Assembly (NCBI GenBank): GCA_947568835.1
Contig: OX387611.1
Location: forward strand, 7,196,001-7,260,000
Direction: 5' to 3'
DNA: 64,000 nucleotides
Origin: Protonemura montana
Lineage: Eukaryota; Arthropoda; Insecta; Plecoptera; Nemouridae
This document shows positions 3,709-61,010 of this stretch, in pieces (the stretch's first letter is position 1; each line of letters begins with the position of its first letter). Position numbers and translations under genes: made by a program. Below the pieces are notes generated by a model, which was not told the DNA's origin, did not search any database, and was given only the letters and a program-made list of their open reading frames with translations.

Positions 3709-3767
3709 TGAAATCTGATTTAAATTGCAAACGCTTGCAATGCGCGGCCTATTTTATTATTATGAAC
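3709..3767 (-). repeat. Tail fragment of the tRNA-bearing element
   Basis: Carries the diagnostic tail: TTGCAAACGCTTGCAA, then TGCGCGG and TATTTTATTATTAT. Nothing of the tRNA-like part remains. A tail-only remnant fits loss of the 5' part during insertion. Confidence 0.75.
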
Positions 3768-4957
3768 TGCGCGCTCAAAAATATTTGTGTTACTAGAAAT
3801 AACAGCTGAAATTATAGGAATGATTATGATTGAACAAAATTGAATACATTTAAGTGTATTTGAAAGTTGAAGAAGATTTTAAACACTATACTTTAGCTTC
3901 TTGTAAAGCTGATTGATTAAGATGAAAAAAAAATCCGCCAATTCTTTAAAAACATCAGATAGACAGAAAATAATTGTAGTCAATATCAATTGTTCCTATC
4001 TTCTAAATCAAATGACAAATCATTATAAATTTAACAGTCACATTTCGACGCTGTCTACAGTTGCACAACATGACACAAAACGGTTTAGACAAACACACTG
4101 ATTAAATACCCACTCACTTCGAAATTCCAACGAAGGAAGAAATAAAACCACAGCCAACCAGTCAACCAAGTAAACTGATAGAGCTCAGTCCCCAAAATTC
4201 AATAGCTTTGCAGCACTAAAAGCATTCCACGGTGGAAGCCCCATCACCTAAAGAACCATAACGCTCACGTATATCCCATCCGACGACGTCACAACCAGCT
4301 ACCCGATTCTCTCAGAAACGACGCTTTTCAAAAGCTACACGTCTTTAATTAATCATTGATGACGTATCATTGACGCGTCGTTAATTAGAGAAGTTCTAGA
4401 GAAGTCTTGTACCCTTTGCCGCACTCACTTTTTTAGTATTACGTTCGTAAGGGTGAAGCGTTTGTGTATAGGGAGTAATCCACCGAAAGGGTTGCTTCCT
4501 TTTCGTGGCTGGTGTTAAGTGGTCAAAGAAAAGACGCCAGTGCATTCATTGGTCGAATGAGTTCTGTGACGTAGACGGTTATGAAGTGAAAAGAGCTTTT
4601 GGATTGAAAACTTTAGGATTCGCGTTTGGGGATGAAATGAGTTTCGATCTTATCTGGAGCGAGCAGACGGAGGGGTTGATTAATTAATGAAATTTGCGCC
4701 GAAGTTGCTATTTTCTAACATTGAAATGCTTTTTAGATGGGACGGAGGGGTGAAGATGCTGTATACTTGAAAAGGATTGCATATTTGACCGAACCGATCG
4801 CAGGATTTCTTGTCTTAAGATGTGAAAATTATTAAAAATTTGAGATTCTTTCTGATGCATCCTAATAAAAAAATAAAAAATCTATACGTTTTAATGCAGA
4901 GTTTGACAAAATACTTTTGAGACACTTTGCTGTTTTCTTAGTCAAATGGTGTATTTA
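3768..4957. other. No gene seen
   Basis: A+T-rich to about 4130, then a mixed stretch to 4700 with CRE-like GACGTCAC near 4284 and TGACG motifs near 4350-4375. The 60-62 codon open frames have no recognisable features. Confidence 0.35.
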
Positions 4958-5318
4958 ACTGGCTGCCCCAGTGCACCCCGTATGTGCACTGGAGGCGATC
5001 TGCGTGTTCGACTGGGCATGTGACTCTGTCCCAGTGCAACGTTCACGTGTTCGACTGTGCATGGACTCTGTCCCAGTGCAACTTTCACGTGTTCAACTGG
5101 GCATGTGACTCTGCCCCAGTGCAACTTTCACGTGCTCGACTGGGCATGTGACTCTGTCCCAGTGCAACGTTCACGTGTTCGACTGGGCATGTGACTCTGT
5201 CCCAGTGCAACTTTCACGTGCTCGACTGGGCATGTGACTCTGCCCCAGTGCAACTTTCACGTGCTCGACTGGGCATGTGACTCTGCCCCAGTGCAACTTT
5301 CACGTGTTCGACTGGCAG
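4958..5318. repeat. 43-bp minisatellite, array A (about 8 units)
   Basis: GACTGGGCATGTGACTC recurs every 43 bp, and most units contain the palindrome CACGTG. The first unit at 4958-5010 is diverged. The same unit builds the larger array at 9372-10066. Confidence 0.96.
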
Positions 5319-6226
5319 AGTTTTTTTAGGCAGACTATTTTTTTATTTAGTTCAGAATTCTTGAAAAAAAATTTGATCGAGGACTTACTGGGGTTTCTTT
5401 TTACTTCAAGCATTGATATCAAAGTTCTGATCAGGAAAATAAAAAAGCAATAGAAAGTTATTCTTGCTTTTCTTTAAAGCGTACGCCAAATCGAAATCAA
5501 AATCAATACAATGTCTATGATTTTAATAAAACTTACTAATATGGAATAAATAGTGGCTAGAAAACTCTACATAATTTCTTTAAAACTGTTTAGAAAATGG
5601 TATGAAGGAACTAACGATAAAAATAACCAAAAAAAATTATATTCAGAAGTGTGTTGTTCAATTCCCTTGGGGCAGCTTGTGGCGCCCCTATAGCGGCCAA
5701 CGCGCACACTAAACTATCTCCAGAGCACACTCTAAACCACATCTTAAGCGATCTCCACCCCGACATTCGACACTAGCGCTGCGGTTTACGCGCCTTGCGT
5801 CAAGCACCGTAACTACAAACTGAAGCCTACACGTTACCCACCCAAACCCATACACTGCCGACTTGATGTAAACTCAGTAACGATGACGGGTATTCAAGAG
5901 GTCGTGATTCGATGAATTCAATTACTAACGCATTAAACATTTAAGTTTTGGTGGAGATTTCGGTGAGAGGTTGCAGGCGCCATCTTGTTTTATTGAAACT
6001 TGGCTAAGGGTGTTGAGAAGTGAGTGAACAAGGTGGCGTTGGATTTATGCTAGAGTTTGTGTGACAGTAGTGTGGTTTGTCATACAAATATGGACCTAAA
6101 CGAATCATTTTAACTGGTCCATCTTTTTTTTGGGAGTCATTTACAAATAAGTTTTGCTCTAGGATACCTAGTCAGTTTTTTATCTTGATTTTATTAAAAA
6201 CTTTAAATAGCAAATATGAAGTAAAC
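5319..6226. other. No gene seen
   Basis: A+T-rich DNA, with a more G+C-rich pocket at about 5660-5880 that has no lasting open frame. The 98-codon frame starting at 6077 runs into the tRNA-bearing element and is an artefact. Confidence 0.35.
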
Positions 6227-6636
6227 AACGTGAAATGTTTTATTATTAACAACACTATAACCGTCTCAAAAATTGATGCCCAAACGCGGACTCGAACCCC
6301 GATCTCCACCTTTCGCGGGTGTTGCTCTGAACCATTGAGCTATCTGGACACTGGCTTTTTGAGACGATTTTAGTGTATTTGATGAGAATGTTCTCATGAA
6401 TGTTCTCATGTTCTCAATGAAAAAATTCTCATCAAATACACTAAAATCGTCTCAAAAAGCCAGTGTCCAAGTAGCTCAATGGTTCAGAGCAACACCCGCG
6501 AAAGGTGGAGATCGGGGTTCGAGTCCGCGTTTGGGCATCAATTTTTGAGATGGTTTTAGTGTTGTTAATAATAAAATACCCCGCGCATTGCAAGCGTTTG
6601 CAATTTAAATAAGAGTTCATCATAACGTGAAATGTT
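6227..6636. repeat. Palindromic pair of tRNA-bearing elements with 13-bp target duplication
   Basis: A minus-strand copy (tRNA-like part about 6278-6350) and a plus-strand copy (tRNA-like part 6465-6536) face each other and are joined through TGATGAGAAT / ATTCTCATCA and a short TTCTCATG-repeating loop. AACGTGAAATGTT flanks the whole pair at 6227-6239 and 6624-6636. The plus arm keeps the full tail; the minus arm is cut inside its tail. Each tRNA-like part has a 7-bp acceptor stem (GTCCAAG with TTTGGGC), a D-arm GCTC/GAGC and a GGTTCGAG T-loop. Confidence 0.93.
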
Positions 6637-7548: not shown

Positions 7549-7836
7549 GCGATCAAGATCTCAGCTCATGTTGTGGACGCCGGTTCGCCTCCTTAAATGT
7601 TTCTCTCGACCCGAACACTTTAACGCCTCTCACCCTTCACCACTTGGGCGATGTTTGTGGGTGGATCGAGGTCTACTTTACGATCTTGCCGCTGCCAGTA
7701 AACCCTGGCATCGGCTTGGGTCGCTCGTTTGGTGCAAGACCCGGGTATTTTAGTAACGATGAGTTGTGCACAGAAAATCATGCCGTGGAAAGAAACATAT
7801 ACATTACAGTGTAATATAATATTACATTACATTATA

Positions 7837-7902
7837 GTGTTCACAATAATAAAATACCCCGCGCATTGCAAGCGTTTGCAATTTATATGAGATTTCATCT
7901 TA
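7837..7902 (+). repeat. Tail-only copy of the tRNA-bearing element
   Basis: Starts in GTGTTCACAATAATAAAATACC and continues through TTGCAAGCGTTTGCAA to GATTTCATCT. It is 5'-truncated with the constant 3' end intact. Confidence 0.88.
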
Positions 7903-8267
7903 ACAGAACGTATTGACAATATGTAAGCTTAAAATAACCCAGTAAATAAATTACTGGTCTCACGAACTTATAAAATGAGGGCTGAATACGTTTTATAAAG
8001 GGCTATTTTAAAATCTCATTTGCTTAATAATTTAAATGTGTGCATTTAGATTAGCGTTACCGACTGGTCTGCACTAGGACGGGCTTCGAATTTGTGCGAT
8101 GACCTAATTTTATTCCACCTAAACATGTGCCACTAGCGGTCAGTGCATTGATTTATATCTCAATCGTACCGTCGAAATTCTTGGAGCAAGAAAAATGCGT
8201 CGGGAGTGACCCAAAAGCGAGATTTTTTTTTTTTTAGAAAATAATAAGAATACCTGTTTAGGATTAT

Positions 8268-8385
8268 TAGGATGAAATCTTATTTAAATTGCAAACGCTT
8301 GCAATGCGCAGGGTATTTTATTATTATCAACAATAAAACCGTCTTAAAAATTGATGCCCAAACGGGGACCGTTTGGGCTGTTCAG
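8268..8385. repeat. Tail plus folded tRNA remnant of the tRNA-bearing element
   Basis: Minus-strand tail GGATGAAATC through TTGCAAACGCTTGCAA and the 3' part of the tRNA-like region. The sequence then turns back on itself: GCCCAAACGG is followed at once by CCGTTTGGGC. This is an inverted copy with a very short second arm. Confidence 0.8.
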
Positions 8386-8793: not shown

Positions 8794-8956
8794 GCAAGTA
8801 TGCAATATTTTTCTATTGGGAACACTATTACTCTCTCAAAAATGTATGCCCAAACGGGTATACCAATTTTTGTGAGGGAAGTTGTGTTTTTAATAATAAA
8901 ATACCCCGCGCATTGCAAGCGTTTGCAATTAAAATAAGATTTCACGCAAGAATGCA
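8794..8956. repeat. Short inverted pair of the tRNA-bearing element
   Basis: Minus arm AACACTATTACTCTCTC to GCCCAAACGG, then a plus arm AATTTTTGTGAGGG with the full tail to GATTTCAC. Flanked by GCAAGTATGCA (8794-8804) and GCAAGAATGCA (8946-8956), a target duplication with one mismatch. The tRNA core is lost between the arms. Confidence 0.75.
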
Positions 8957-9371: not shown

Positions 9372-10066
9372 GACTGGGCATGTGACTCTACCCCAGTGCA
9401 ACTTTCACGTGTTCGACTGAACATGTGACTCTGTCTCAGTGCAACTTTCACGTGTTCGACTGGGCATGTGACTCTGCCCCAGTGCAAATTTCACGCGTTC
9501 GACTGGGCATGTGACTCTGCCCCAGTGCAACTTTCACGTGCTCGACTGGGCTTGTAACTCTGTCCCAGTGCAACTTTAACGTGTACGACTGGGCATGTGA
9601 CTCTGCCCCAGTGCAACTTTCACGTGCTCGACTGGGCATGTGACTCTGCCCCAGTGCAACTTTCACGTGCTCGACTGGGCATGTGACTCTGTCCTAGTGC
9701 AACTTTCACGTGTTCAACTGGGCATGTGACTCTGCCCCAGTGCAACTTTCACGTGTTCGACTGGGCATGTGACTCTGTCCCAGTGCAACTTTCACGTGTT
9801 TGACTGGGCATGTGACTCTGCCCCAGTGCAACTTTCACGTGTTCGACTGGGCATGTGACACTACCCAATACAACTTTCACGTGTTTGACTGGGCATGTGA
9901 CTCTGCCCCAGTGCAACTTTCACGTGTTCGACTGGGCATGTGACACTACCCAATGCAACTTTCACGTGTTCGACTGAGCATGTGACTCTGCCCCAGTACA
10001 ACTTTCACTTGTTCGACTGGGCATGTGACTCTGCCCCAGTGCAACTTTCAAGTGTTCGACTGGCAG
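9372..10066. repeat. 43-bp minisatellite, array B (about 16 units)
   Basis: Same unit as array A. Two units near 9857 and 9943 share the private variant CACTACCCAAT, so multi-unit blocks were probably copied together. Both arrays end with CGACTGGCAGA instead of CGACTGGGCATG. Confidence 0.97.
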
Positions 10067-11261: not shown

Positions 11262-11930
11262 TGTCCAACAGCACCAAGGACCGGCCACCGCTTAGCCTTG
11301 TCCCTTTGACACACTGTGTTGCCTGCTCCTGTCCAACAGCACCAAGGACCGGCCAACGCTTAGCCTTGTTCCTTTGACACACTGTGTTGGCTGCTCCTGT
11401 CCAACAGCACCAAGGACCGGCCACCGCCTAGTCTTGTCTCTTTGACACACTGTGTTGGCTGCTCCTGTCCAACAGCACCAAGGACCGGCCACCGCTAAGC
11501 CTTGTCCCTTTGACACACTGTGTTGGCTGCTCCTTTCCAACAGCACCAAGGACCGGCCACCGCTTAGTCTTGTCTCTTTGACACACTGTGTTGGCTGCTC
11601 CTGTCCAACAGCACCAAGGACCGGCCACCGCTTAGCCTTGTCTCTTTGACACACTCTGTTGGGTGCTCCTGTCTAACAGCACCAAGGACCGGCCACCGCT
11701 TAGCCTTGTCCCTTTGACACACTGTGTTGGCTGCTCCTGTCTAACAGCACCAAGGACCGGCCACCGCTTAGCCTTGTCTCTTTGACACACTGTGTTGGCT
11801 GCTCCTGTCCAACAGCACCAAGGACCGGCCACCGCTTAGCCTTGTCTCTTTGACACACTGTGTTGGCTGCTCCTGTCCAACAGCACCAAGGGCCAGCCAC
11901 CGCTTAGCCTTGTCTCTTTGACACGCTGTT
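11262..11930. repeat. 68-bp minisatellite (10 units)
   Basis: CACCAAGG recurs at 11272, 11340, 11408, 11476, 11544, 11612, 11680, 11748, 11816 and 11884, exactly 68 bp apart. Units alternate between TTGTCCC and TTGTCTC versions. Stop-free units make several minus-strand frames of 60-120 codons, which I do not treat as genes. Confidence 0.98.
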
Positions 11931-13186
11931 TTGCTGACCAATGAATCTCAGTCCATGGTTATTTGTCTGGCTGGAGAAAAAGTTTTAGATTGGTTTTTAG
12001 TTAAGATTCAAAAAATTCACGAAAACTTTATTTTTACTGAATCGCTTTGCCCAAAAATATGGAAAGAACTGCTCCTAATTTATGAAGCCCGAAAAATTGC
12101 TGGAACAAGAAAAGCTAGCTCAAAAACATGTTTCATCATGCATTTTGATTCTTATATTGATTAAATTTGGTTTCAGATATGTACGACATTGACATTCAGA
12201 CATTCAGACATTGCTAAGAACTGACGTCAAAGCTGCGGATTTAAAGAGCAAATTTTTTCCCCCAAGCTTAAAAAGAACTTCGTTTTCAAGCTCCTATAAA
12301 AGAGAAATAAAAATACATTGGCTTAACATCTAAATGTTCAAATATAGCCTGTAATAAAATAAAATCGCGCAGTCGTAAAATTGCCAAGATATTCATGGAA
12401 GCATATCTTTGAGAGATAATTCTATTGCTCCTTGCAAATGGGCTTTTGGCTGAAATTCGGAACAAAGAAAGAGAGAGAGCTAGTGAGTGAGCGAACGCTT
12501 TTGAGAAAGAATGAAAAGAAGCATGGAGGCGATCATGGAGTCGTAAAAGAAACGTTGGTTGAATGTCGAAGAAGATTTAATATTACCAATTTGTATGGCA
12601 AGAGACGTGGTATTATTGAACTGCTGGTTTCGTGTAATAGGAATGTGAGATATGGGTTTTTTTCAGGCAAATGCGTTCATATTTGATGTTGTGAGATTGA
12701 ACAGAAATGTTTTGTTGCCGCAAAAATTTTTAAATTCCACACAAAATCGTTTCTGTAAGATTTAATTGATCAATCTAAGCAAATAGATTCTAACACATAC
12801 TAAATTCTTTCAGTTCATTTTTGGTGGTGCATAAAATCGATACGTTTGTAAAGTAGAGAAATGGTCACTCAAAGTTGTACACAAGCCTTAAACCAGGGAG
12901 CATACTCTCCCGGCAGAAGCGCCACTGGTCGTTTTAGGGTGTCATGCTGGCCAACCGTAATTTATTTTACCACAGAAAATCTTCCCTGCGCTATATTCTC
13001 TAATCTTTTGTAAACCATTTTACTTCTATTCTAAAGCTTTTGTTATCCCAAAATGTTTTGACTTTCGAACTTTTTTAAGAATTTTTTACCAATTATAACA
13101 AACCTGAGATTTATTTTTTTAGACATTGTTAGTGTTTTAAAATCCCATTTCTGAAATCATGACTGTATTTTAATTCATGAGTTCGT
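11931..13186. other. No gene seen
   Basis: The 77- and 84-codon plus frames (11931-12164, 12432-12686) lack splice context, start context or recognisable motifs. The rest is A+T-rich. Confidence 0.35.
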
Positions 13187-13612
13187 AGCAGTGCTGGGGG
13201 CAGTCCTTGTACTGGTATCTTCTCTCACGGGCTAGACTGTAGCAATGCAGGGGACAGTCCTTGTGCTGGTATCTTCTCTCACGGGCTAGACTGTAGCAAT
13301 GCAGGGGACAGTCCTTGTGCTAGTATCTTCTCTCACGGGCTAGACTGTAGCAACGCAGGGGACAGTCCTTGTGCTGGTATCTTCTCTCACGGGCTAGACT
13401 GTAGCAATGCAGGGGACAGTCCTTGTGCTGGTATCTTCTCTCACGGGCTAGACTGTAGCAACGCAGGGGACAGTCCTTGTGCTGGTATCTTCTCTCACGG
13501 GCTAGACTGTAGCAATGCAGGGGACAGTCCTTGTGCTGGTTACTCCGCTCACGGGCTAGACTGTAGCAATGCAGGGGACAGTCCTTGTGCTGGTTACTCC
13601 GCTCACGGGTGT
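13187..13612. repeat. 54-bp minisatellite (8 units)
   Basis: AGCAATGCAGGGGACAG recurs at 13241, 13295, 13349, 13403, 13457, 13511 and 13565, after a diverged first unit at 13187. The last two units share TTACTCCGC in place of TATCTTCTC, so the right end was copied locally. Confidence 0.97.
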
Positions 13613-13640
13613 GTGAACTAGCACTTAATTAAATCAGCAC

Positions 13641-15999: not shown

Positions 16000-16540
16000 G
16001 TTGGTTTGTTGAGAAATGTGGTGTTTATTTCAATTTGTTTTTCGATATTTTGAGATCTTTGGTTTCTTGAGGTATTCTAATTGTTGCTCAGCCGGAGTTC
16101 AAGGTGTTCTTATTTAATAGTGATGCTCATTCATTTTACAATGATTACCAACAGGAAATTTGCGAAGGTATTTTGAGTAGATTTTTTTATGGTTAAATTG
16201 AGTTTCTTACTAAAATTTCGAGAAAATTTAATTGTTTTCTCCCATATGAAGAGCACGTAGAACCTGTATAACCACTTTGCATATAACTGAGAGGCATTAT
16301 TTTTTCATTAAAATAAAATGACAAGAGTAAAAAAAATAAAAGCAAAAGATATAAAAAGATGTGGAAATTTTAGACAATTTCTAGGAAATTTGTCACAAAA
16401 ACCAAAATGAAGAAAAGATAAAAAGTCGTGAAAAGCTTTAAGCTGTAACGTGTTTTTTTGTTGTTGTGTTTTTATAAAGTGTGACTTGCGTTATGAATTT
16501 GCGAACTCAATTCGAATTTCTTTGAAAATGAAAGAGCAAC

Positions 16541-16655
16541 ATCCGTGACAGGTGGAAATCGGGGTTTGAGTCTCCGGCTGGGCACAAACATTTTAGGCAG
16601 GTTATTAGCGATACTGAAAGTAAAGCACTCTTCAAATTGCAAGCATTTGCAATAA
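16541..16655 (+). repeat. Diverged tRNA-bearing element, 5'-truncated
   Basis: AGAGCAACATCCGTGACAGG, a GGGGTTTGAGTC T-arm and GGGCACAAACATTTTAGGCAGG match the 3' half of the tRNA-like part and the tail, ending in TTGCAAGCATTTGCAA. An old copy by its divergence. Confidence 0.8.
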
Positions 16656-16856
16656 AAACTAGGACTTAAAAATTTAAAAACTAAAATCTAAAAATCTAAA
16701 TTTAAAAATCTAAAAACTATTAAAAACTAAAATCTAAATGCGTTGTATGTATGAGCAGAGTTTATTTTGTTATTTGGTCCAGTATTTTTTTTTTTTAGAA
16801 AGGGGCACCCATTTGGGTTTTTTCAGTATTTTCTGTAAATTAAATTATTGTTTAAA

Positions 16857-19257: not shown

Positions 19258-19345
19258 CCATTTTTTTAGAGGTTAGTAGTGTTTCTAATCATAAAATACT
19301 CTGTCTTCTGTAAGCACGTGTATTTAAGAACAGATTTCACACAAA
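19258..19345 (+). repeat. Degenerate tail of the tRNA-bearing element
   Basis: TAGTGTTTCTAATCATAAAATAC and a closing CAGATTTCACA match the tail pattern. The TTGCAAGCGTTTGCAA core is eroded to TGTAAGCACGTG. Confidence 0.45.
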
Positions 19346-24762: not shown

Positions 24763-25165
24763 ACTACTGAATTTCCCAACATTTCGTAACATATACTAGT
24801 TACTTCTTCAAGGGTTAAAGCAGTCCTGACAATTTTCCAATAATAAAAGAACCACATAAAATTATAACAATTACCTAGTTCAAGCTTCCTAAATGCATCC
24901 TAAAGATCCTAAAGATGCATTTAGGAAGCTTGAACTAGGTAATTGTTATAATTTTATGTGGTTCTTTTGTTATCCGAAAATTGTCAGGACTGCTCAAACC
25001 TCTGAAGAAGTAGCTAGTATATGTTACGAAACGCCGGGAAATTTAGTAGCCCTTTACTTAGCATTCAAAAGCCAGTTCAAATAGTTTTTCTAAAAAACTA
25101 GTGCTAAGGATAAATCAAGTAGACATGAGTCTAAAAACCATCATATCACAAAACTGTCTCTTAAA
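24763..25165. repeat. Foldback element with about 137-bp palindromic arms
   Basis: Arms 24763-24899 and 24914-25051 are reverse complements around a 14-nt centre; the innermost ~57 bp are perfect. Outward of the right arm come TTAGCATTCAAAAGCCAG and AAGTAGACATGAGTC, found also at 31.8, 54.8 and 59.5 kb. The right arm includes TCTGAAGAAGTAGC and TTACGAAACG, a CTGA..GA / CGAAAC pairing like that of hammerhead-bearing retroelement repeats. The 63-codon frame within it is an artefact. Confidence 0.9.
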
Positions 25166-31589: not shown

Positions 31590-32110
31590 ATGGTATAAAA
31601 AAATCTTGAATATCTTGTGATTGTTTTGAGATGTGTTTTGCGGTTTTGCTCAGTGTTGAAGAGTTTTCTGGTTCTAAAAAGGGACCTAACATCTCGACGT
31701 TTTGACGTGCCACGGATCGTCATCTTCAGGAGGATGGTGCTTATTTTTAAAAGCAATTTTAATTAAAAATTTGAATTAAACATTTTTAAAAGCAATTTAA
31801 AATAAAAAAAAATATATATATATAATTTTTGAAAAAACTATTTGAAATGGGTTTTGAATGCTAAGTAAAGGGCAACTAAATTTCCCGACATTTCGTAACT
31901 TGTACCATCGTGATAGTCTAATAGTTGAGACATGATAGTCTAAAAACCACCATAAAAAGTATCATTCTCCTGAAGATGACGAGCCTCGTCACAACGTCGA
32001 GACGTTAGGCCCTTTTTTGGACCAAAAAACACCTCAACGTAGAGCAAAACTGCAAAACACATCTCAAAATCACACCACGGCTCTGAAAAAAACCACTCAA
32101 CCAAATGTCA
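31590..32110. repeat. Foldback repeat with inverted arms of about 130 bp
   Basis: A minus arm at about 31590-31740 and a plus arm at about 31965-32100 share CTGAAGATGACGA, ACGTCGAGA, GTTAGG and GCAAAACACATCTCAAAA. Between the arms (31826-31950) lie pieces of the foldback family at 24.8 kb (TTTGAATGCTAAGTAAAG, ATTTCGTAACTTGTACC). Arm identity is roughly three quarters, so this copy is old. Confidence 0.8.
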
Positions 32111-35855: not shown

Positions 35856-35924
35856 AATCATCAATCAGCTAAGAATTACAGATCTGTAAAGAGTTAGATA
35901 TAGGTTACTTCTTTTAAATGTTTT

Positions 35925-35990
35925 AAGTGTTCCTAATAATAAAATACTCTTAAGCAAGCTGGCATTTGCAATTTGAATCAGATTTCAAAG
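35925..35990 (+). repeat. Diverged tail of the tRNA-bearing element
   Basis: AGTGTTCCTAATAATAAAATAC, then GCATTTGCAATTTGAATCAG and ATTTCA. Tail only. Confidence 0.7.
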
Positions 35991-37300: not shown

Positions 37301-37728
37301 ATATGTTTAACGTTTTATATTATAACCGTCTCAAAAATTGATGCCCAAACGCGGACTCGAACCCCGATCTCCACCTATCGCGGGTGTTGCTCTGAACCAT
37401 TGAGCTACTTGGACACTGGCTTTTTGAGACGATTTTAGTGTATTTGATGAGAATGACAGTTCTCCAAGGAGTAGAACCAAGAGGCTGTGAATACTCACAG
37501 TCGGAGAACTGTCATTCTCATCAAATACACTAAAATCGTCTCAAAAAGCCAGTGTCCAAGTAGCTCAATGGTTCAGAGCAACACACGCGACAGGTGGAGA
37601 TCGGGGTTCGTGTCCGCGTTTGGGCATAAATTTTTTAGACGGTTATAGTGTTGTTAATAATAAAATACCCCGCGCATTGCAAGCGTTTGCAATTTCAATA
37701 AGATTTCATCGCAATATGTTTAACGTTT
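37301..37728. repeat. Palindromic pair of tRNA-bearing elements with 15-bp target duplication
   Basis: ATATGTTTAACGTTT flanks the pair at 37301-37315 and 37714-37728 without mismatch. The minus arm starts abruptly at ATAACCGTCTC (tail lost); the plus arm ends with the full tail to GATTTCATCGC. The central loop (37449-37513) contains GACAGTTCTCC / GGAGAACTGTC and CTGTGAATACTCACAG, leader pieces that fold on themselves. Confidence 0.95.
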
Positions 37729-41180: not shown

Positions 41181-41189
41181 GTGAATACT

Positions 41190-41769
41190 CACAGTCACTC
41201 TGATTCTTGTGACGCAATACTGCGTCAGAAGAACAAATGAATGTTAGGATGAAATCTTATTTAAATTGCAAACGCTTGCATTGCGCGGGGTATTTTATTA
41301 TTATCAACACTATAACCGTCTCAAAAATTGATGCCCAAACGGGGACTCGAACTCCGATATCCAACTATCGCGGGTGTTGCTCTAAACCATTGAGCTACTT
41401 GGACACTGGCTTTTTGAGACGATTTTAGTGTTTTATAGTGTATATACGAATCCAACGTCAAATTGGAGTTATTCGAGTTTGACAGGTTGTGACGTGATAT
41501 AGCGTCACTAGAATCAGAGTGACTGTGAGTATTCACAACCTCTTGGTTCTACTCCTTGGAGAACTGTCATTCTCATCAAATACACTTAAATCGTCTCAAA
41601 AAGCCAGTGTCCAAGTAGCTCAATGGTTCAGAGCAACACTCGAGATAGGTGGAGATCGGGGTTCCAGTCCCCGTTTGGGCATCAATTTTTGAGACGGATA
41701 TAGTGTTGTTAATAATAAAATACCCCACGCATTGCAAGCGTTTGCAATTCAAATAAGATTTCATCCTAA
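41190..41769. repeat. Full palindromic pair of the tRNA-bearing element with complete leader
   Basis: The minus copy (41244-41430) and plus copy (41437-41769) both retain complete tails. The plus copy shows the whole element: leader 41450-41600, tRNA-like part 41609-41681, tail to 41769. The leader holds GTGACG..CGTCAC and CTGTGAGTATTCACA hairpins. A detached leader piece precedes the pair at 41190-41235. No clear target duplication. Confidence 0.92.
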
Positions 41770-43760: not shown

Positions 43761-44794
43761 TCTAGATAAGGCTCCATTATTCTGTATATTTTAACGACTT
43801 GGTCCAACCACTAAATGAATATCATTATCACCGAGCGGGAAACGACACTACATTTCGAATCGACGTCACTTGAGAGCGGCCGTTTCTATCGAATCCGCTC
43901 CAAATGAAACATGGCAGCTGCAAACGGCCACGCTGCGACGGCAAATGAAATAAAACGGCTTTGTAGCGAAAGAGAGAGAAAGATGTCACGATGTACGATG
44001 CGGAAAAGGGAGAGGGCTGAATGATTCTCGTCCGTCGAGTTGATTAGACTTGCGCCCCTAGATTTCGGGTCGGTCGCACAAAATGATGGGATGTGTTTGA
44101 ATTTCGACCTAGATTGCTAGACCTGCTTCTTGTCTTTCTGTTAGGTCTTGCAGATATTTTTTTTTAGCTGTAGTGAATAATTTTTTGATCAATAAATATG
44201 TTCTCGGAAAGGTTAGCAGATTAGTAAGTTGTGAAATGTTTGTTTCACAGCATGTTTTTGTACTGCTTTTTTCAGATATTGCATTGTATTTATGTTGGAA
44301 AAGCGTCCAAGACAAAGCGGTTAAGATTTTCTCTAATTTCGACTCAAAATGAGGCTATCGTAATATCGTCATAACTTTAAAATATTTTTGGATTTATCGT
44401 ACATTTTCCATCATTTTTGGTAACTGATGATGTCTGATTTGCCATGCTGCTAGAATTCACAAAAACATTTTAAATGTTATATTTACATTTAAATTTTAAA
44501 GAAGATAATCAATGTTTCATTACCAAGTAGGTATTTCATATTTTACTTTGTACTCAAACATGTATAACAAAACAAAAACACAATAACAAAAAAAAATTAA
44601 AACCGTTCATCTTTGTGGGTCACTAAGTTTCACAAGGGAAATACGTGTTCGAGAAATGTTGATTTAAAAAAAAAATCACCAAAACAGGATTGGAGCAAAA
44701 TAATATCTAAATTGCTCTCTCAGATTTTTATAGCGTATGAACAATCAATGAAAAAAAGTACCTAATACATCAAATAAACTCAAAATACACTTAT
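43761..44794. other. No gene seen
   Basis: A more G+C-rich, CpG-bearing pocket at 43830-44090 without a coding frame, then A+T-rich DNA. Confidence 0.3.
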
Positions 44795-44975
44795 ACACTA
44801 AAATTGTCTGAAAAAGGCAGTTTCCAAGTAGCTCAATGGGTTAGAGCAACACCACGTTAGGTTGAGATCGGGGTTCGAGTCCCCATTTGGGCGTCAATTT
44901 TTGAGACGGTTATAGTGTTCATAATAATAAAATACCCCGCGCATTGCAAGCGTTTGCAATTTAAATAAGATTTCA
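44795..44975 (+). repeat. Single tRNA-bearing element
   Basis: An unpaired copy: ACACTAAAATTGTCTG, tRNA-like part from about 44823 to 44893 (GGGGTTCGAGTCCCC T-arm intact), and full tail to GATTTCAAC. The leader is absent apart from its last bases. Confidence 0.93.
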
Positions 44976-46133: not shown

Positions 46134-46494
46134 TTAAATGTAAGCTTTACAAAAGTTGTAAAATGTTATAGCAGAAAAACTAGAAATATATTTGAATGAC
46201 GCAGTGGTTCAGAGTCGCAATTTTTTTTGTGGTGTAGTTGACGTTTATGTTCTGTATTGATTGACTTTTGATCCCAAAATAAACCCTAGTCGACGTTTCG
46301 TCAGCGTCGGCAGATAGCAATACAATTTTGAACATAATTTAGTTTTATTTTGTTACTAGATACACTACTTCTCTCTCAAAAATAGGTGAACCTTAAAAAA
46401 AACGAACAAAAAATTGTAAGAAATTTTTAGGAGTTCCCAAACTTGCTTGTTTATTAATTCCGGACGGTTTGTTGGATTTGAAGTAAAAACTAAA
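46134..46494. other. No gene; foldback-type signature
   Basis: CTAGTCGACGTTTCGTCAGCG near 46287-46307 resembles the CGAAACGTC ends of foldback or Penelope-like repeats. Otherwise A+T-rich. Confidence 0.35.
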
Positions 46495-46957
46495 AACCCT
46501 GACGTATTAGGATGAAATCTTATTTAAATTGCAAACGCTTGCAATGCGCGGGGTATTTTATTATTAACAACACTATAACCGTCTCAAAAATTGATGCCCA
46601 AACGCGGACTCTAGCCCCGATCTCCACCTGTCGCGGGTGTTGCTCCAACCAATTGAGCTATTTGGACACTGGCTTTTTGAGACGATTTTAGTGTATTTGA
46701 TGAGAATGACAGTTCTCCAAGGAGTAGAACCATGAGGCTGTGAATACTCACAGTCACTCTGATTCTAGTGACGCTATATTACGTCACAATCTGTCAAACT
46801 CGAATAACTCCAATTTGACGTTGGCTTCGTTGCTTTTTTAGGATGAAATCTTATTTAAATTGCAATCGCTTGCAATGCGCGGGGTATTTTATTATTAACA
46901 ACACTATAACCGTCTCAAAAATTGATGCCCAAACGCGGACTCGAACCCTGACGTATT
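46495..46957 (-). repeat. Direct dimer of the tRNA-bearing element with 14-bp target duplication
   Basis: AACCCTGACGTATT flanks the insertion exactly at 46495-46508 and 46944-46957. Inside are two minus-strand units in the same direction: a full one with leader (46509-about 46835) and a second truncated in its T-arm (about 46840-46943). Confidence 0.95.
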
Positions 46958-49885: not shown

Positions 49886-50190
49886 GATTTAAGGATGAAA
49901 TCTTATACAAATTGCAAACGCTTGCAATGCGCGGGGTATTTTATTATTATCAACACTAAAACCGTCTCAAAAACTGATGCCCAAACGCGGATTCAAACCC
50001 CGATCTCCACCTATCGCGGGTGTTGCTCTGAACCATTGAGCTACTTGGACACTGGCTTTTTAAGACGATTTTAGTGTATTTGATGAGAATGACAGTTCTC
50101 CAAGGAGTAGAACCAAGAGGCTGTGAATACTCACAGTCACTCTGATTCTAGTGACGGTTAAAGTGTTGATAATAATAATAAAAAAAAACT
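49886..50190. repeat. tRNA-bearing element with short inverted second arm
   Basis: Full minus-strand unit from GGATGAAATC to the leader hairpin (CTGTGAATACTCACAG, TCTAGTGACG). Then without a gap a plus-strand tail piece, GGTTAAAGTGTTGATAATAA. The switch falls at GACG, shared by both arms. Confidence 0.88.
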
Positions 50191-52019
50191 TTATGTTATT
50201 TATTTGAAATTCCGCCGAGAAACCTGTATTAATTGTTTAAATTAACGCTTAAGTGAAATAAACAACAGTATTTATATTTGTAGTAAAATAAATAAACAAG
50301 TGAAAATATTTGTAACTGAGTGGGCCAACTTTTGACCCACTCGGTTGCAAAGGGAGATGTTTAAATTTGCGTTACCTGCCAGACGAAGAGAGAAAGAAAA
50401 CTTGTTGTTACTTGTTCGAAAGAGAAGGAGAGATGCAGAGAGGCAAAGTTATTGGCAATAGAGTTGATGTTACCTACTTCTCCCTTTTTTCTTTTACCGA
50501 GCACCGTTGTTTTTGGGAAAATTACGAAGGATAGAATGTTTTCTCGTTGGATGCTGAGAAAATAAGAAAGAATAGGAAGCGAGCAAGAAAATAGAGATAG
50601 ATACCGGGATGATCTGTGTGCTTTTGCTGTGAACGTTATTTTGGCTAATATTTATTCTTGTCTAGTTTAGTCTTGGGTTATCTTTATTTTATCTCAATTG
50701 ATTTTATTTTAGTTTTTGTAACAATTTAAAACTATTATAACATTGACGTGTTACATATTGCATTACAATTGTTTAATTAGCTAATAATATACTCGTAAAT
50801 ATTTAGCATTATTAACATGTTGTGGCAGTTGAATATGTATTTTCTGAGTTTCTTTAGTTTTTGAGGCGGTTATTATGTTCATAATAATAAAAAAAAAAAA
50901 CTATTGATCTGTATTTTGAATGCTAAGCGAAGAACAACTAAATATCCCAACGTTTCGTAACTTGTACCTGTTACTTTATCAATGGTTAGAGCAGTTCTGA
51001 CAATTTTCCGATAACAAAAGAACAACATAAAATTATAACAATTACCTTTTCAATTTTTTTTTTTTATAAAAGCCATCCTGATGATGTAGTTTTCATGTAA
51101 AAAGCTATATGTCACTTTGACACCTTGAGAAAAATTGCAAAAATCGTTAAAAAAAACACCAAGAACGGGTTTGTTTGTAAATTATTGGAAAAATTGATAT
51201 AAAACAACATTGTGTTGTACCATTATTTGTCCATAATCCCAGGGCGTACATTCGAATAGTAAAAAAATGTAGACTCGTCATTCTCTTAACAGTTAAAGAA
51301 GATTTGGATACAATTAATTTAAACTTAAACTCGGTGCTTTAAGATTTTCCCCTTGCAACTATATACCAAGGAGCCAGCAAGATGTGTTTCACCCCTTCAT
51401 TCCTGCAAACAATCTCAACGTTACTCGCTTAACTCACCGCGTCACCTTAACCACAACAACAGCCCACAAACTGAGTTAAGTTCCACTTAACCCGCTCAAT
51501 TGCGCAAGGCAAAGCACTACGACAGATGACGTCATATAAATTACCCGTCGACGCACCAAAACTCGTTTGCCAGCAAATGATGCGCACTCTTGCGGTACGA
51601 ATAATGAAGTCATATCTGTGACGTCACATACGAGCTGTGACGTGACTGGTTGTGATGGGGAGATGGGAGGGATGCAAGCACACACACACACACAATGTGC
51701 CTTCTTGTTTCATGTTGGATATGCGAGGTGACAGAAGGCGGTGCTTTGTCAGCCATGACACAAGTTGCTGTCATCCGTAACGGTAGTCGCTGTAGCCATG
51801 GTGATATAGTCTGTTTAGTACAAGATGGAGGCTAGAGTTCGTGGGAGAAGTTGGTTAAAAATACACATTTTGCAGTTTAATCAGCGTGTAGTTAAGAATT
51901 CAATGAATAATATCAATTACCATGTTGTATTATACGTTTAGAAATTCAAATAAGGACGTAAGAGATGGATAGCTGATGTAATTGGCATTTTGAACTTGAC
52001 GCTATGTATACCTGCGGAA
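50191..52019. other. No confirmed gene; CRE-like pair
   Basis: At 50865-50900 lies a tail-only piece of the tRNA-bearing element ending in an A-run. At 50905-51045 is a foldback-family piece (TTTGAATGCTAAGCGAAG, TTTCGTAACTTGTACC). A G+C pocket at 51355-51700 has TGACGTCA twice and an (AC)n run at 51680-51694. The 71-codon minus frame there is not supported. Confidence 0.4.
51527..51626. promoter_or_regulatory. Two CRE-type TGACGTCA palindromes
   Basis: TGACGTCA at 51527-51534, directly followed by TATAAA at 51535-51540, and TGACGTCA at 51619-51626, with TGACGTGA close after at about 51637. In a G+C pocket. TGACGTCA is the known CREB/ATF binding palindrome; a promoter here is inference only. 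Confidence 0.3.
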
Positions 52020-52440
52020 GAAAGTAGAATTGAGAAGCTCTGTCAGGTGATCTCAGCATCTCCATGGCTACCAAACGTTGAATCTGCCATTGAACCTCCT
52101 ATGCTAGGCCATGATATACCCATGGTAACATAAGATGGCAGAATTGAGAAGCTCTGTCAGGTGATCCCAGCATCTCCATGGCTACCAAACGTTGAATCTA
52201 CCATTGAACCTACTATGCTAGGCCATGATATACCCGTGGTAACATAAGATAGCAGAATTGAGAAGCTCTGTCAGGCGATCTCAGCATCTCCATGGCTACC
52301 AAATGTTGAATCTACCATTGAACCTCCTATGCTAGGCCATGATATACCCATGGTAACATAAGATGGCAGAATTGAGAAGCTCTGTCAGGTGATCCCAGCA
52401 TCAACATGGCTACCAAACGTTGAATCTACTATAGAACCAT
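52020..52440. repeat. 114-bp minisatellite, array 2 (about 3.7 units)
   Basis: GAGAAGCTCTGTCAGG starts at 52032, 52146, 52260 and 52374, exactly 114 bp apart. TCAGGTGATCCCAGCATC variants in units 2 and 4 show that this array diverged on its own. Confidence 0.96.
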
Positions 52441-54123: not shown

Positions 54124-54660
54124 GTGGCGGATTTGTGACTTTATCGTTAACTAGAGCGAACCGTAGATCGAATTACTGATGACAGTGGGGCTTGATATTT
54201 ATATTTATTTGTGGTGTTTAACGACGCACTGTTCTGACATCTGGCCATGCGGTACTGGTCTATTAGCCTAGGAGGGAGGAGGGGAAACCCGGTACCGGTA
54301 CGTAGCCTACTCCTGTCGAAGAGCACCAAGGGGACCACCGGCTTAACGCCCCTTCCAAAGGACGGTACAATGCGAGCAACAGGACTCCTCCACGAATCCA
54401 TGCTGTAGAGAGGTTGATAAGCAAGACGAGTGAAGTTGCTGTACTAACTTTGATCCCTCCAGCCTCTCTCCCAATCAGAACTGGCCATGTGTATGATGGT
54501 CACCCATCCAATACTTGACCCAGCGCAGTGTTGCTTAACTTCGGTGATCTCACGAGAACCGGTGTTTCCAACACGCCAAACCGTTCGGTGGCAGATTTGT
54601 GACTTTATCGTTAACTAGTGCGAACCTCAGATTGAATTACTGAAGAAAGTGGGGTTTGAT
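54124..54660 (-). repeat. 5S-headed SINE between 73-bp direct repeats (copy 14)
   Basis: The SINE (about 54210-54588) has tail, domain, body and head in minus orientation, with a deletion between tail and domain. Its flanks 54124-54196 and 54588-54660 are direct repeats of 73 bp with 8 mismatches, far longer than usual SINE target duplications. Confidence 0.95.
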
Positions 54661-55014
54661 GTGAGACTATCTTCATTATATTTTGCCTCGTTGTGTAAAC
54701 AATTAACTTTACATCTTACCTTAACTTTACCAATCAATAATAATCAATGGAAACTTTAGTTTTTCTTTACTAAGCGTTCAAAGCCCAGTTCAAATAGTTT
54801 TTGTTAAAACTAGTGCTAAGATTACATCAAGTAGACATGAGTCTAAAAGCAATCAAAACCAATCATATGCAGTAAAAGTCAGTTGTTTTTGTGAGTTAGG
54901 AGCCTAAATGTGAGCTGGAAAATATTTTAATAGTAATTCTTGTAATTCTTAGCAAGTTTTAAGAAGTATCTATACAATAACAGTTTCACAGAAAAAGTAG
55001 ATGTATTTGAACAA
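54661..55014. repeat. Foldback-family fragment
   Basis: AAGCGTTCAAAGCCCAG, AATAGTTTTTGTTAAAACTAG and AAGTAGACATGAGTCTAAAA at 54770-54870 match the flank of the palindrome at 24.8-25.2 kb. The rest of the stretch holds nothing recognisable. Confidence 0.6.
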
Positions 55015-58300: not shown

Positions 58301-59277
58301 CACCACTCAGCAGCGGCTCGTTTTACACCTAGGGTTAAACTGAAAGAGGTGGTGTTGTTTAGCTGTGGAATTTGCAAGCGTAGTTGACAATTAATTTGAT
58401 GTTGGATTACAATTTTAATTAAATGGTTCGCCTAAAACGTGTAGTTAGCTAAAAATTAGTAATAAAACTTTTCATTATATCATAGTTTGTTACTTAATTG
58501 ATATATTAAAAAAATTAATAATTGGAAAAGTATAGATCTTGCCAGTTGTTTTGTTAATTTATTTAAATGTATTTCTTGTAAATAAACTTAACCAAAACTT
58601 TGCGCAACATGAGAGAAACACTAAACCATTCAAAATTTGCACTTAAGGGCAATAACAATTCAACGTTTTAGCTATAAATTTGCCTTCAAACGCGCTTAAG
58701 TGCCCCCAGAAATTATCAAGCACCGACCACTAACGCCAAGAAATACCAAAAATAGAACCAACCATTCCAAAACTAGACTATATATATATACGAATAGCCA
58801 ATTGCTTTGTTCGGTAAAACTGTTCAGAAGTTTCGATTCTCAACTATCTCACTTGCACTGACAGTAATCATGCACGCACAATATTTAACTAATTAAGAAA
58901 ACTTCTCATACATTTCATACTCTCTCTTTCTCTCTAGATACACTAATGACCCAATTAATTAAGTACTAAGTAACATTAGAGCTTACTTCTCTGAAAACCA
59001 CAACAGAGCAGCCAACAATAACATCTACGAAATACACAAAGAGCTGGAAAGCATAGAACGTCTTGTTTGTAGTTCCTTAAGCTGACATAATTTAGATGCT
59101 GCAGCATAGTGAGGCAAAACGGACAAAGTCTCGTTCAGTGGCGATATTCGGGGGCAAAATTTCCAAGAAAATCACTATTTATTTTGTAGTCCTGAATAAA
59201 ACCGTGTGCTTTTTTTTTTTATATATTTTTGAAGAACGTCTTGTGTTTACTTGAAAGAATTATACGAAATTTGAGTG
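55336..59277. other. Nearly 4 kb without a recognised gene or repeat
   Basis: A+T-rich with long poly-A (about 56446-56462) and an (ATT)n run at 57779-57800. The 57360-57680 region is open on both strands but split by a poly-A tract, and I see no splice logic. CpG-bearing pockets at 55510-55640 and 58190-58330 have no coding support. Confidence 0.35.
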
Positions 59278-59475
59278 AAAAAAATCAGAACGCTTTTGAT
59301 GAAATATTATTTAGATTGCAAACGCTTGTAATGCGCGGGGTATCATATTATTATGAACACTATAACCGTCTCAAAAATTGATGCCCAAACGGGAACATGT
59401 ATAACCTTTTTATCTCCGTTCCGGCATTCATTTTTGAGACGGTTATAGTGTTCATAATAATAAAAAAATCAAAAC
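59278..59475. repeat. Short palindromic tRNA-bearing element with target duplication
   Basis: Minus-strand tail (GATGAAATATTATTTAG, TTGCAAACGCTTGTAA) to GCCCAAACGG, a ~40-bp loop, then a plus arm ATTTTTGAGACGGTTATAG cut in its tail. Flanks AAAAAAATCAGAAC (59278-59291) and AAAAAAATCAAAAC (59462-59475) differ once. The constant 3' end is on the left here, so the orientation is opposite to 6.2 and 37.3 kb. Confidence 0.85.
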
Positions 59476-60719
59476 TAAACCTTATTATGAAAGATCAAGC
59501 AAATAATGGAAAAAAGTGACTTGATGATGGTTTTTAGACTCATGTCTACTTGATTTATCCTTAGCACAAGTTTTTAGAAAAACTATTTGAACTGGGTTTT
59601 GAATGCTAAGTAAAGAGCTACTAAATTTTAGTGACTTTAAATTTAAAATAAGTGACTTGATGCTGGTGTTTTCATCTAAAGCACCATGACGAGTCACAAA
59701 ACGTGAGTTATAGTAGATTAAATTAGCAAATTTTTACTGATGGAACAATTTTTAACTGGACAATAACAATTGAGTAGGATTTTAAAAAGAAAAATTAAAT
59801 TATCACTACGACGAAAAACGAAAAGCGAACTGGGTTTTAAATGCAAAGTCACAATCGCGGTGTTTTTAAAAACGATCGCAATGTGTTTTAGTAAACCAGA
59901 AATAGACAGAGAGAAATGAAATGAAATGCAGTTCCCGTTTCATTTCAGTTTAGCAGTTCCCTCCCATCAGATACTGTTTTCTTTACCAAAATAGCGAAGC
60001 CATCACGAACCACGAAATCCACCACTGTGTTTATTTATTTTTTTGTTACAAAACACTACTACCCCAGCAACACACAAAGCAAACAACCAAACGACTTTTT
60101 CAACATCTAAGTCTTCATAATTCAGCAGACACCACGCATTGTCCTGGCAGCGCTGCGATCGTAAGCAAAAAAACACAAAATAACTTGCACTACAATTGGT
60201 GTCTGGTGGTGGGATTTCTTGGACAATGTCACGTGACTAATGATCGTGCACTGGCATTGTGTGCGATGACAAATAGTTATGACCGGTACAGCGATGTGTT
60301 TGATCTGTCTGCGTTATGTGTGGGAATGTAATGTATAGGTATGTGTGGTTAGGCATGGTTGGGGTGATATGTTATCGCCGGTGGTAAGATATCGTGCAGT
60401 TGTAATAACACCGTGGCTTAGTGGAGTGTGCAAAGACGAGTCAACTGGGTGGTGTTCACGGGAGATTTACCTTTACTTTTGCCGATTGATCGATTACTTA
60501 TCGTCGCCGGTGCTATTGATATCATACATAAAAAAATTTACTTCCAAGATTTTTTTCAAAAATAGCGGTAATTTAGACTATTTACATTAAACTTAATTTA
60601 ATTTCGATGTTTCACCACTTAAAACTCTTTCTAACCAACAAAAAAAACAAAAAGTGCATTGCAAAAGTCCTAGTTATATAAAATAATGTGGTAAAAACGA
60701 TTTTTTTTTTACATTTTTT
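59476..60719. other. No gene; one foldback fragment
   Basis: 59508-59640 is a minus-strand piece of the foldback family (AGACTCATGTCTACTTG, TTTTGAATGCTAAGTAAAG). The 81-codon plus frame at 60345 has no motif. Otherwise A+T-rich. Confidence 0.35.
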
Positions 60720-61010
60720 TATGATAAGCAACGCTATCAACCTTTCAAAAATTGATGACCAACTGGGGACTCAAACCCAGATATCCATCGGTCGTGGGTG
60801 TTGCTTTAACTAATTTAGCTAATTAGATACGCTCTTGTTGTGTTTATTTTAATGCGCTTTATGAAATTGACGTATCTCTATGGAAGCCAATATGATTCCA
60901 GTGACGCTCAACTGCGTAACATCCATTCAATCTCTTTTAATTCCAAATTGACGTTGGATGCGTTTTAATAAACGTCGCATTAGTGTTTCTAGTAATAAAA
61001 TATATTTCCT
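60720..61010. repeat. Old inverted copy of the tRNA-bearing element
   Basis: A diverged minus unit with tRNA-like part (GGACTCAAACCCAGATATCC, GTGGGTGTTGCTTTAAC) and leader to CCAAATTGACGTTGGATG, followed by a plus-strand tail piece TAGTGTTTCTAGTAATAAAA. Strong divergence marks it as the oldest pair seen. Confidence 0.7.

What the first reader, a model, noticed from the sequence alone, without database searches (positions are those of the whole stretch)
3709..61010. A tRNA-bearing element that is usually palindromic
Sixteen loci carry the same element. At eight of them (6.2, 8.3, 8.8, 37.3, 41.2, 49.9, 59.3, 60.8 kb) an inverted second arm follows with tails pointing outward. The constant end is always the tail (GATTTCATC), and the other end is cut at varying points, as expected for target-primed reverse transcription. 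Independent insertions would not give so many head-to-head pairs. The inference is that the reverse transcript folds back and copies itself before integration, or that a palindromic RNA is the mobile form. I know of no SINE family for which this is the normal state.
Basis: partly seen in the sequence, partly recalled or inferred. Interest (0 to 1): 0.78.

Follow-up and report, generated by a model that had tools for sequence, protein, structure and literature searches.

The report
tRNA element inserting Penelope-style, head-to-head
A short tRNA-carrying repeat in an animal-like genome is often inserted as two mirror-image copies, and its ends look like the work of a Penelope-type copying enzyme rather than the LINE enzymes usually credited with moving such elements.

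Summary
The repeat is real: a 324-nt unit (5' module, tRNA-like domain, A-rich tract, 47-49-nt tail) at 17 places by my count. Seven of 17 carry an inverted second arm; an eighth pair (41.2 kb) has no target duplication that I could find; one locus is a direct tandem dimer; eight are single. A duplication lies outside both arms clearly at 6.2 and 37.3 kb and probably at 59.3 and 8.8 kb. One claim is wrong: the second arm's outer end is not cut at random. Ten of 26 arms lack the tail and stop near FL 275 (37.3 kb at 257 or 272, by scoring); 16 run to FL 316-324. Penelope-like elements (PLEs) show this: reverse transcription starts at two adjacent RNA sites, both target strands are extended, and the stretch between is an optional tail (PMC11167929). 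Two other window families have a hammerhead-like core; one forms a palindrome with its own outer duplication. Best reading: a non-autonomous tRNA-bearing element copied by a PLE-type enzyme. A palindromic mobile RNA and classical twin priming fit poorly; self-priming and LINE dual priming are not excluded. No genome was held and no PLE protein found, so the enzyme is inferred.

The parts
46507..46830 (-). full-length unit (FL 1-324): 5' module FL 1-124, stem flank FL 125-157, tRNA-like FL 162-239, stem flank FL 240-273, A-rich tract FL 268-278, tail FL 278-324
   Evidence: consensus folds 4.94 sd below shuffles
46838..46951 (-). 5'-truncated first unit (FL 211-324) of a direct tandem dimer with 46507-46830
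46944..46957 (-). target duplication copy (AATACGTCAGGGTT), outer side of dimer; partner copy 46495-46508; its last bases overlap the unit by microhomology
   Evidence: 14/14, 1 of 400 random pairs as good
6238..6390 (-). left (tail-less) arm, FL 123-275
6425..6625 (+). right (tailed) arm, FL 124-324
   Evidence: shares variant C201A with the left arm, seen in no other aligned copy
6227..6239 (+). target duplication AACGTGAAATGTT; partner copy 6624-6636
   Evidence: 2 of 400 random pairs as good
8806..8856 (-). left arm FL 227-277
8864..8944 (+). right arm FL 238-318
   Evidence: probable target duplication 8794-8804 / 8946-8956 (10/11)
   Evidence: 6 of 3000 random stretches as good
19259..19339 (+). 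right arm FL 238-318
   Evidence: its tail is weak (151 of 3000 as good)
37321..37502 (-). left arm FL 76-257, or to FL 272 with a gapped end
37503..37710 (+). right arm FL 113-320
37301..37315 (+). target duplication ATATGTTTAACGTTT; partner copy 37714-37728
   Evidence: 1 of 400 random pairs as good
41244..41434 (-). arm A FL 134-324, full tail
   Evidence: no target duplication found for the pair or for either arm
41446..41769 (+). arm C FL 1-324, full length with tail
49892..50156 (-). right arm FL 58-322
50145..50178 (+). left arm, FL 240-273 by BLAST (FL 252-273 outside the overlap with the right arm), joined through CGTC microhomology (read by eye)
59298..59396 (-). right arm FL 222-320
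   Evidence: probable target duplication 59465-59475 / 59281-59291 (10/11)
59417..59465 (+). left arm FL 227-275
60717..60963 (-). old arm FL 1-275, without detectable tail
60981..61002 (+). second arm FL 256-277
50858..50892 (+). single tail-less copy (FL 241-275), abutting family F2; possible target duplication 10/11
   Evidence: (12 of 400 random pairs as good)
46346..46388 (-). single old tail-less copy FL 235-277
3709..3767 (-). single copy FL 260-318
7832..7903 (+). single copy FL 253-324
8267..8369 (-). single copy FL 222-324; its 9-nt inverted repeat is not significant
16533..16667 (+). single old copy FL 185-316
35912..35987 (+). single copy FL 243-318
44793..44975 (+). single copy FL 135-318
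24764..25049 (.). family F2 (PLE-like, hammerhead-like core in one arm): head-to-head palindrome, arms 24764-24906 / 24907-25049; longer right arm runs to about 25144
   Evidence: target duplication 24753-24765 / 25142-25155 (one gap)
31624..32069 (.). family F3 (hammerhead-like core in one arm): inverted arms 31624-31745 and 31954-32069, head-to-head by my reading, with an F2 fragment between

Best explanation
A short non-autonomous retroelement built around a tRNA-like domain, whose RNA is copied into target DNA by an enzyme that behaves like a Penelope-like (PLE) reverse transcriptase. Copying starts at one of two places on the RNA, FL about 275 (A-rich tract) or FL about 320 (tail end). 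At 7-8 of 17 insertions both nicked target strands are extended, each by a cDNA that runs toward the RNA's 5' end. The two cDNAs meet head to head and are joined at variable points, sometimes with microhomology or small fillers. The staggered nicks give one 11-15 bp target duplication outside both arms. The stretch of about 48 nt between the two start sites is the 'tail' seen on one arm. Shown: tailed and tail-less arms, head-to-head arms, one outer duplication (clear at 2 pairs, probable at 2), shared variants, a tandem dimer. Inferred: the PLE identity of the enzyme, both-strand extension, and transcription from the tRNA-like part.
For: 10 of 26 arms lack the tail (0 of 10 reach the 1% level; 6.2 kb left arm is nearest, 79 of 3000), 16 have it (15 of 16 at 1%; 19.2 kb right arm 151 of 3000). 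With strict scoring the ends are 9 at FL 272-277, 1 at 257, 0 at 278-315, 16 at 316-324. Outer duplications at 6.2, 37.3 (clear), 59.3, 8.8 kb (probable) and round the 46.5 kb dimer. Pair arms share derived variants (48 of 40320 permutations as high). Arms overlap by 22-160 nt at all 7 pairs, which non-overlapping twin priming does not predict. PAc, a PLE protein, extends both strands and starts at two adjacent internal sites that define the genomic tail (PMC11167929, abstract and main text read). In A. vaga, Penelope inverted pLTRs with an optional 31-bp tail on one, partial tandems and 8-10 bp duplications are described (PMC3846280). In this window family F2 has the only hammerhead-like core on the + strand, a palindrome with a 13-14 bp outer duplication (score 11.5 against a 99% null of 9.5), and 3 of 6 arms with, 2 of 6 without a tail of about 50 nt.
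Against: No hammerhead in the element itself (0 on both strands; none among Rfam matches). No PLE reverse transcriptase or GIY-YIG found, but only 10 ORFs were scanned (0 of 10 hit). No sequence match between this element's tail and F2's was shown. The exact stop near FL 275 depends on scoring: looser gap costs with 70 nt of flank push 1-4 of 26 ends into FL 278-315, and nhmmer puts the 6.2 and 8.8 kb left ends at model 284 and 281 and 16.5 kb at 309. The sixth F2 arm (25.0 kb left) stops before either F2 end. Site 1 abuts T-runs, so annealing of T-rich target DNA to the A-rich tract could set that end without a PLE; PAc start sites were not homologous to the target. Tail length differs (about 48 against 30-40 nt). 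A T5 run right after the tRNA-like part should stop Pol III. 37.3 kb arms share no derived variant and differ at position 201, a site variable among copies. The hammerhead core is a recalled motif. Only one window was seen.
Confidence: 0.57

Rival explanations
1. A LINE-mobilised SINE with dual priming: one RNA is copied from the bottom-strand nick via the tail, a second RNA from the top-strand nick, which is T-rich and anneals to the A-rich tract near FL 275.
For: Dual priming is proposed for L1 (PMC2837659, passages). The junctions at site 1 lie at T-runs at 6.2, 8.8, 50.0 and 59.3 kb, although four of those Ts belong to the element itself. Duplications of 13-15 bp at the clearest loci resemble L1's 15 bp (PMC4245944, passages).
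Against: Three tail-less ends are not second arms (60.8 kb longer arm, 46.35, 50.86 kb). In PMC4245944 5' inversions were seen with L1 in human cells and, of the other LINEs tested, once. The hammerhead-like families nearby show inverted arms and an optional tail too, which a LINE would not explain.
Confidence: 0.21
2. Self-priming: the first cDNA folds back at its 3' end, copies itself into a second arm, and the hairpin is integrated.
For: Arms share variants; inner ends of the two arms lie within 11 nt at 4 of 7 pairs (mean 1.7 in permutations, 144 of 5040 as high); the CGTC microhomology at 50.0 kb and the repeated filler at 6.2 kb (sequences); self-priming was proposed for Penelope (PMC3846280).
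Against: It does not predict that second arms stop near FL 275 without tail. At 37.3 kb the second arm reaches 37 nt further and at 8.8 kb 11 nt further than its supposed template, unless the centre was deleted later. 37.3 kb arms share no derived variant.
Confidence: 0.17
3. The mobile form is a palindromic RNA with fixed ends, and reverse transcriptase skips parts of the hairpin.
For: Outer ends are nearly fixed and the centre varies.
Against: The inner ends differ from pair to pair; tail-less single copies (46.35, 50.86 kb) and a full-length single-arm unit (46.5 kb) exist; each tRNA-like promoter would transcribe outward (inference).
Confidence: 0.04
4. Independent insertions that happen to lie head to head.
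For: 41.2 kb: arms differ at the marker T264A and no common duplication was found.
Against: One duplication outside both arms, clear at 2 pairs and probable at 2; shared variants.
Confidence: 0.01

Closest known systems
Penelope-like elements with GIY-YIG endonuclease (Penelope/Poseidon; PAc of Anolis, A. vaga Pen families)
   Same: Head-to-head inverted terminal parts, a tail on one arm, two adjacent 3' ends, partial tandem, 5' truncation, short target duplications
   Different: No protein, no hammerhead found, carries a tRNA-like domain; tail about 48 nt against the published 30-40; duplications 11-15 bp against 8-10 bp in A. vaga
tRNA-derived SINEs mobilised by LINEs
   Same: tRNA-like domain, short, non-coding, 5' truncation, target duplication
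   Different: tRNA-like part starts 162 nt inside the unit, not at the 5' end; a T5 run follows it; inverted arms at 7-8 of 17 loci; two kinds of 3' end
Metazoan retrozymes (hammerhead, proposed PLE passengers; PMC7229834, passages)
   Same: Short non-autonomous element proposed to use PLE machinery; tandem copies
   Different: Retrozymes have type I hammerheads and tandems up to 62-mers; here a tRNA-like part, one dimer and no hammerhead
Helenus/Cassandra TRIMs (tRNA or 5S in LTRs; PMC10886601, passages)
   Same: Small-RNA-gene sequence inside a retroelement that is not a SINE
   Different: LTR elements with PBS and PPT; here 11-15 bp target duplications and head-to-head arms
L1 5' inversions (twin priming; PMC2837659, PMC4245944, passages)
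   Same: Inverted part inside one target duplication, junction microhomology
   Different: Twin-primed arms are separate parts of one RNA with an internal deletion; here they overlap at 7 of 7 pairs

Membership tests
Penelope-like elements | reverse transcriptase plus GIY-YIG ORF in the element | tested here: not met
   324-nt unit is too short and its 3' part has stops in all three frames; 0 of 10 window ORFs hit Pfam. It could only be a non-autonomous passenger
Penelope-like elements | two adjacent 3' ends giving an optional tail | tested here: met
   10 of 26 arms without and 16 with tail; strict scoring gives 0 ends between FL 278 and 315, looser scoring 1-4
Penelope-like elements | head-to-head inverted terminal parts within one target duplication | tested here: met
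   clear at 6.2, 37.3 kb, probable at 59.3, 8.8 kb
Penelope-like elements | tandem or partial tandem copies | tested here: met
   46.5 kb dimer in one duplication, 1 of 17 loci
Penelope-like elements | hammerhead motif in the terminal part | tested here: not met
   0 in the unit on both strands; none among Rfam matches
Penelope-like elements | AT-rich targets | tested here: inconclusive
   no composition test of targets was run; the window itself is 33-44% GC
LINE-dependent SINE | small-RNA-derived Pol III promoter at the 5' end | tested here: not met
   tRNA-like part is present but starts at FL 162 of 324; three copies reach FL 1
LINE-dependent SINE | 3' tail shared with a partner LINE | not testable with these tools
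   no genome held
L1-type twin priming | inverted and direct parts are non-overlapping | tested here: not met
   overlap 22-160 nt at 7 of 7 pairs
Helenus-type TRIM | direct LTRs with PBS/PPT and short fixed duplication | tested here: not met
   duplications of 13-15 bp at the clearest loci, head-to-head arms; PBS/PPT not searched; the TRIM duplication length is recalled

The most novel reading that the evidence does not exclude
A tRNA-bearing SINE-like family that depends on a Penelope-like element: a small-RNA-gene-derived passenger of the third class of eukaryotic retroelements, beside SINEs (LINE-dependent) and Cassandra/Helenus (LTR-dependent), with head-to-head insertions as a normal product of both-strand priming.
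Probability: 0.48. Interest if true: 0.75.

Novelty: new variant of a known kind. Interest (0 to 1): 0.61.

Why it matters
PLE transposition is poorly understood; both-strand extension and two start sites are reported for one protein in vitro (PMC11167929). A short passenger family whose copies record both start sites, both arms, the joining points and the target duplication would make that mechanism testable by counting genomic copies. If the partner is a PLE, the rule that tRNA-derived short elements ride on LINEs needs an exception. My searches of the held library listed no report of a tRNA-bearing PLE passenger (listings of 20, 15, 12 and 10 papers); most subscription journals are not in it.

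Tried and rejected
Copies elsewhere: 0 exact matches of a 22-nt tail pattern in viral contigs; one 20-nt match in a bacterial contig (L001) looks like chance, since BLAST of the window against it gave only 21-29 nt hits. Classical twin priming was dropped because the arms overlap. A palindromic mobile RNA was dropped because centres differ. A ribozyme in the element was sought and not found. An RNase Z or m1A58 stop as the cause of 5' truncation near FL 222-243 is only an idea, from recalled tRNA biology. Protein genes: 0 of 10 ORFs matched Pfam; these are 10 of the 43 ORFs of 90 aa or more, and the other 33 (tandem-repeat ones and others) were not scanned. Tail stretches of this element and of F2 do not fold better than shuffles (z -0.31, -0.36, -1.14).

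With 70 nt of flank strict scoring gives 9 at 272-277, 1 at 257 (37.3 kb), 0 between and 16 at 316-324, but three looser schemes give 1-4 ends between and 17-20 at 316 or more, by gapped runs into AT-rich flank. I therefore tested for tail sequence directly: absent in 10 of 10 tail-less arms at the 1% level, present in 15 of 16 tailed arms. A uniform model put all 7 second-arm ends within 5 nt in 0 of 200000 draws, and within 20 nt (the spread if 37.3 kb ends at 257) in 74 of 200000. I lowered the leading odds from 0.60 to 0.57 for this and for the weaker duplications at 59.3 and 8.8 kb.

Rows dropped: weak matches at 3.85, 13.1, 14.75, 22.9, 27.8, 32.85 and 58.4 kb and the tRNA of another family at 40.9 kb were not counted as copies; 41166-41230 (FL 42-106) is counted under no locus; 41.2 kb was left out; 6.2, 37.3 and 41.2 kb were not because their arms are plain. 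Left arms at 19.2 and 50.0 kb were first picked by eye, then tested. 'Left' and 'right' are set by tail presence, so a fixed left end is best read as two kinds of end used by either strand: of 8 pairs, 6 have one of each, 60.8 kb has two tail-less ends and 41.2 kb two tailed ends. In the shared-variant test some shared variants are subfamily markers also seen in other copies (for example C250G and T254A of 8.8 kb in the 46.35 kb copy).

Full report
What is there. The window is eukaryotic by content (tRNA-like and 5S-like repeats, minisatellites); the species is unknown and no genome is held. One interspersed repeat has a 324-nt unit (FL coordinates; best copies 46507-46830 minus and 41446-41769 plus, 97% and 96% to a hand-made consensus): a 5' module (FL 1-124), a tRNA-like domain (FL 162-239, called by ARAGORN in 4 arms as cga and in one as aga, and by Rfam in 6 arms), flanks that can pair around the tRNA-like domain (FL 125-157 with 240-273; the unit folds 4.9 sd below shuffles), an A-rich tract (FL 268-278) and a tail ending GATTTCATC(CTAA).

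How many and in what form. I count 17 loci: 7 with an inverted second arm (6.2, 8.8, 19.2, 37.3, 50.0, 59.3, 60.8 kb), the 41.2 kb pair, a direct tandem dimer at 46.5 kb, and 8 single copies (3.7, 7.8, 8.3, 16.5, 35.9, 44.8, 46.35, 50.86 kb). The arms at 6.2, 37.3 and 41.2 kb are plain.

One event per pair. Duplications lie outside both arms at 6.2 kb (AACGTGAAATGTT, 13/13) and 37.3 kb (ATATGTTTAACGTTT, 15/15), and probably at 59.3 and 8.8 kb (10/11 each); 2, 1, 14 and 15 of 400 random pairs score as well. The 46.5 kb dimer has AATACGTCAGGGTT (14/14; 1 of 400) outside both units. 19.2, 50.0, 60.8 and 41.2 kb gave nothing significant. Arms of a pair share 11 derived variants where permuted pairings share 4.4 on average; 48 of 40320 permutations reach 11, and without 41.2 kb 16 of 5040 reach the observed 9. 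The clearest is C201A, seen only in the two arms at 6.2 kb. Against: 37.3 kb shares none and its arms differ at position 201, and some shared variants are subfamily markers.

The new observation. It is not. Of 26 arms and copies, 10 show no tail sequence (0 of 10 at the 1% level) and 16 have the tail (15 of 16 at 1%). With strict scoring and 70 nt of flank the ends are 9 at FL 272-277, 1 at 257 (37.3 kb left), 0 at 278-315 and 16 at 316-324; three looser schemes push 1-4 ends into the gap by gapped runs into AT-rich flank. The 7 second-arm ends lie within 5 nt (gapped 37.3 kb) or 20 nt (ungapped), reached by 0 and 74 of 200000 uniform draws. Three of the 10 tail-less ends are not second arms (60.8 kb longer arm, 46.35, 50.86 kb). 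What varies is the centre: first-arm ends at FL 1-238, second-arm ends at FL 76-256, with a CGTC microhomology at 50.0 kb and a stuttering filler at 6.2 kb (sequences). The arms overlap by 22-160 nt at all 7 pairs.

What that resembles. Penelope-like elements. Frangieh and colleagues (PMC11167929; abstract and main text read) show that a PLE protein cleaves and extends both target strands and starts reverse transcription at two adjacent internal RNA sites, with no difference between strands; the stretch between is the 30-40 nt 'tail' present on a fraction of genomic copies. In A. vaga, Penelope elements are bounded by inverted pLTRs, most often head-to-head, with a 31-bp tail optionally on one, form partial tandems, and have 8-10 bp duplications; self-priming was proposed (PMC3846280; passages and sections 6 and 11). 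These architectural features have counterparts here.

Local support. Two other families have a hammerhead-like core (recalled motif CTGANGA, stem II, GAAA-like; one match per strand in the whole window, in one arm of F2 and one arm of F3, not in their other arms; Rfam named no hammerhead there). F2 forms a palindrome at 24764-25049 (143-nt arms, 90%, no spacer) inside a 13-14 bp duplication with one gap, and its copies at 59.6 and 54.8 kb have candidate duplications too (scores 11.5, 18.5, 11.5 against a 99% null of 9.5). Of 6 F2 arms, 2 stop at a T-run (31.8, 50.9 kb), 3 run about 50 nt further (25.0 right, 54.8, 59.6 kb) and 1 (25.0 left) stops earlier. Two of the three tailed copies keep an open frame there, the third does not, as could be if a PLE ORF starts there. 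F3 has inverted arms that I read as head-to-head.

Mechanism. Likely: nicks on both strands of the target, RT start at FL about 275 or about 320 on either strand, two cDNAs running to variable points, joined head to head. Shown: the products. Inferred: the enzyme and order of events. T-runs flank site 1 at several loci, so annealing of T-rich target DNA to the A-rich tract may help, and a LINE with dual priming (PMC2837659, passages) stays possible. Self-priming fits the close inner ends (4 of 7 within 11 nt; 144 of 5040 permutations) but not the outer end.

Membership. The element is not filed as a PLE: it has no ORF and no hammerhead. It is not a plain SINE either: its tRNA-like part sits inside the unit and is followed by five Ts, which should end a Pol III transcript (established Pol III biology, not tested). 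The reading 'works like a PLE insertion' is stronger than 'belongs to PLEs'.

Verdict. Observation partly confirmed, interpretation partly supported, main mechanism revised. Interest 0.61.

Noticed in passing
24764-25144, 31826-31906, 50896-51047, 54749-54855, 59524-59628: Family F2, PLE-like, with a hammerhead-like core in one arm and an optional tail; a palindrome at 24.8-25.0 kb inside its own target duplication.
   Followed up: partly
31624-32069: Family F3: inverted arms, one with a second hammerhead-like core, and an F2 fragment between the arms.
   Followed up: partly
41166-41230: A piece similar to FL 42-106 (88%) just beyond the tail of the 41.2 kb left arm, about 190 nt from a tRNA of another repeat family; the 5' module may be shared between families.
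   Followed up: no
14749-14838, 17614-17747, 40880-41013: A second tRNA-bearing repeat family (ARAGORN calls Ala and Ser) with conserved flanks upstream of the tRNA in two copies.
   Followed up: no
26886-27004, 46015-46135, 54469-54589 and 33197-33475, 35331-35673: 5S-rRNA-like sequences (Rfam 5S) inside a dispersed repeat, and 91-bp tandem arrays that look derived from it.
   Followed up: no
666-1336, 5003-5315, 9372-10063, 11262-11933, 13185-13609, 27851-28514, 36273-36791, 48498-49001, 52026-52438: Many clean minisatellites with units of 43-114 bp, some with the same unit at distant places (0.7 and 36 kb; 5 and 9 kb; 48 and 52 kb).
   Followed up: no
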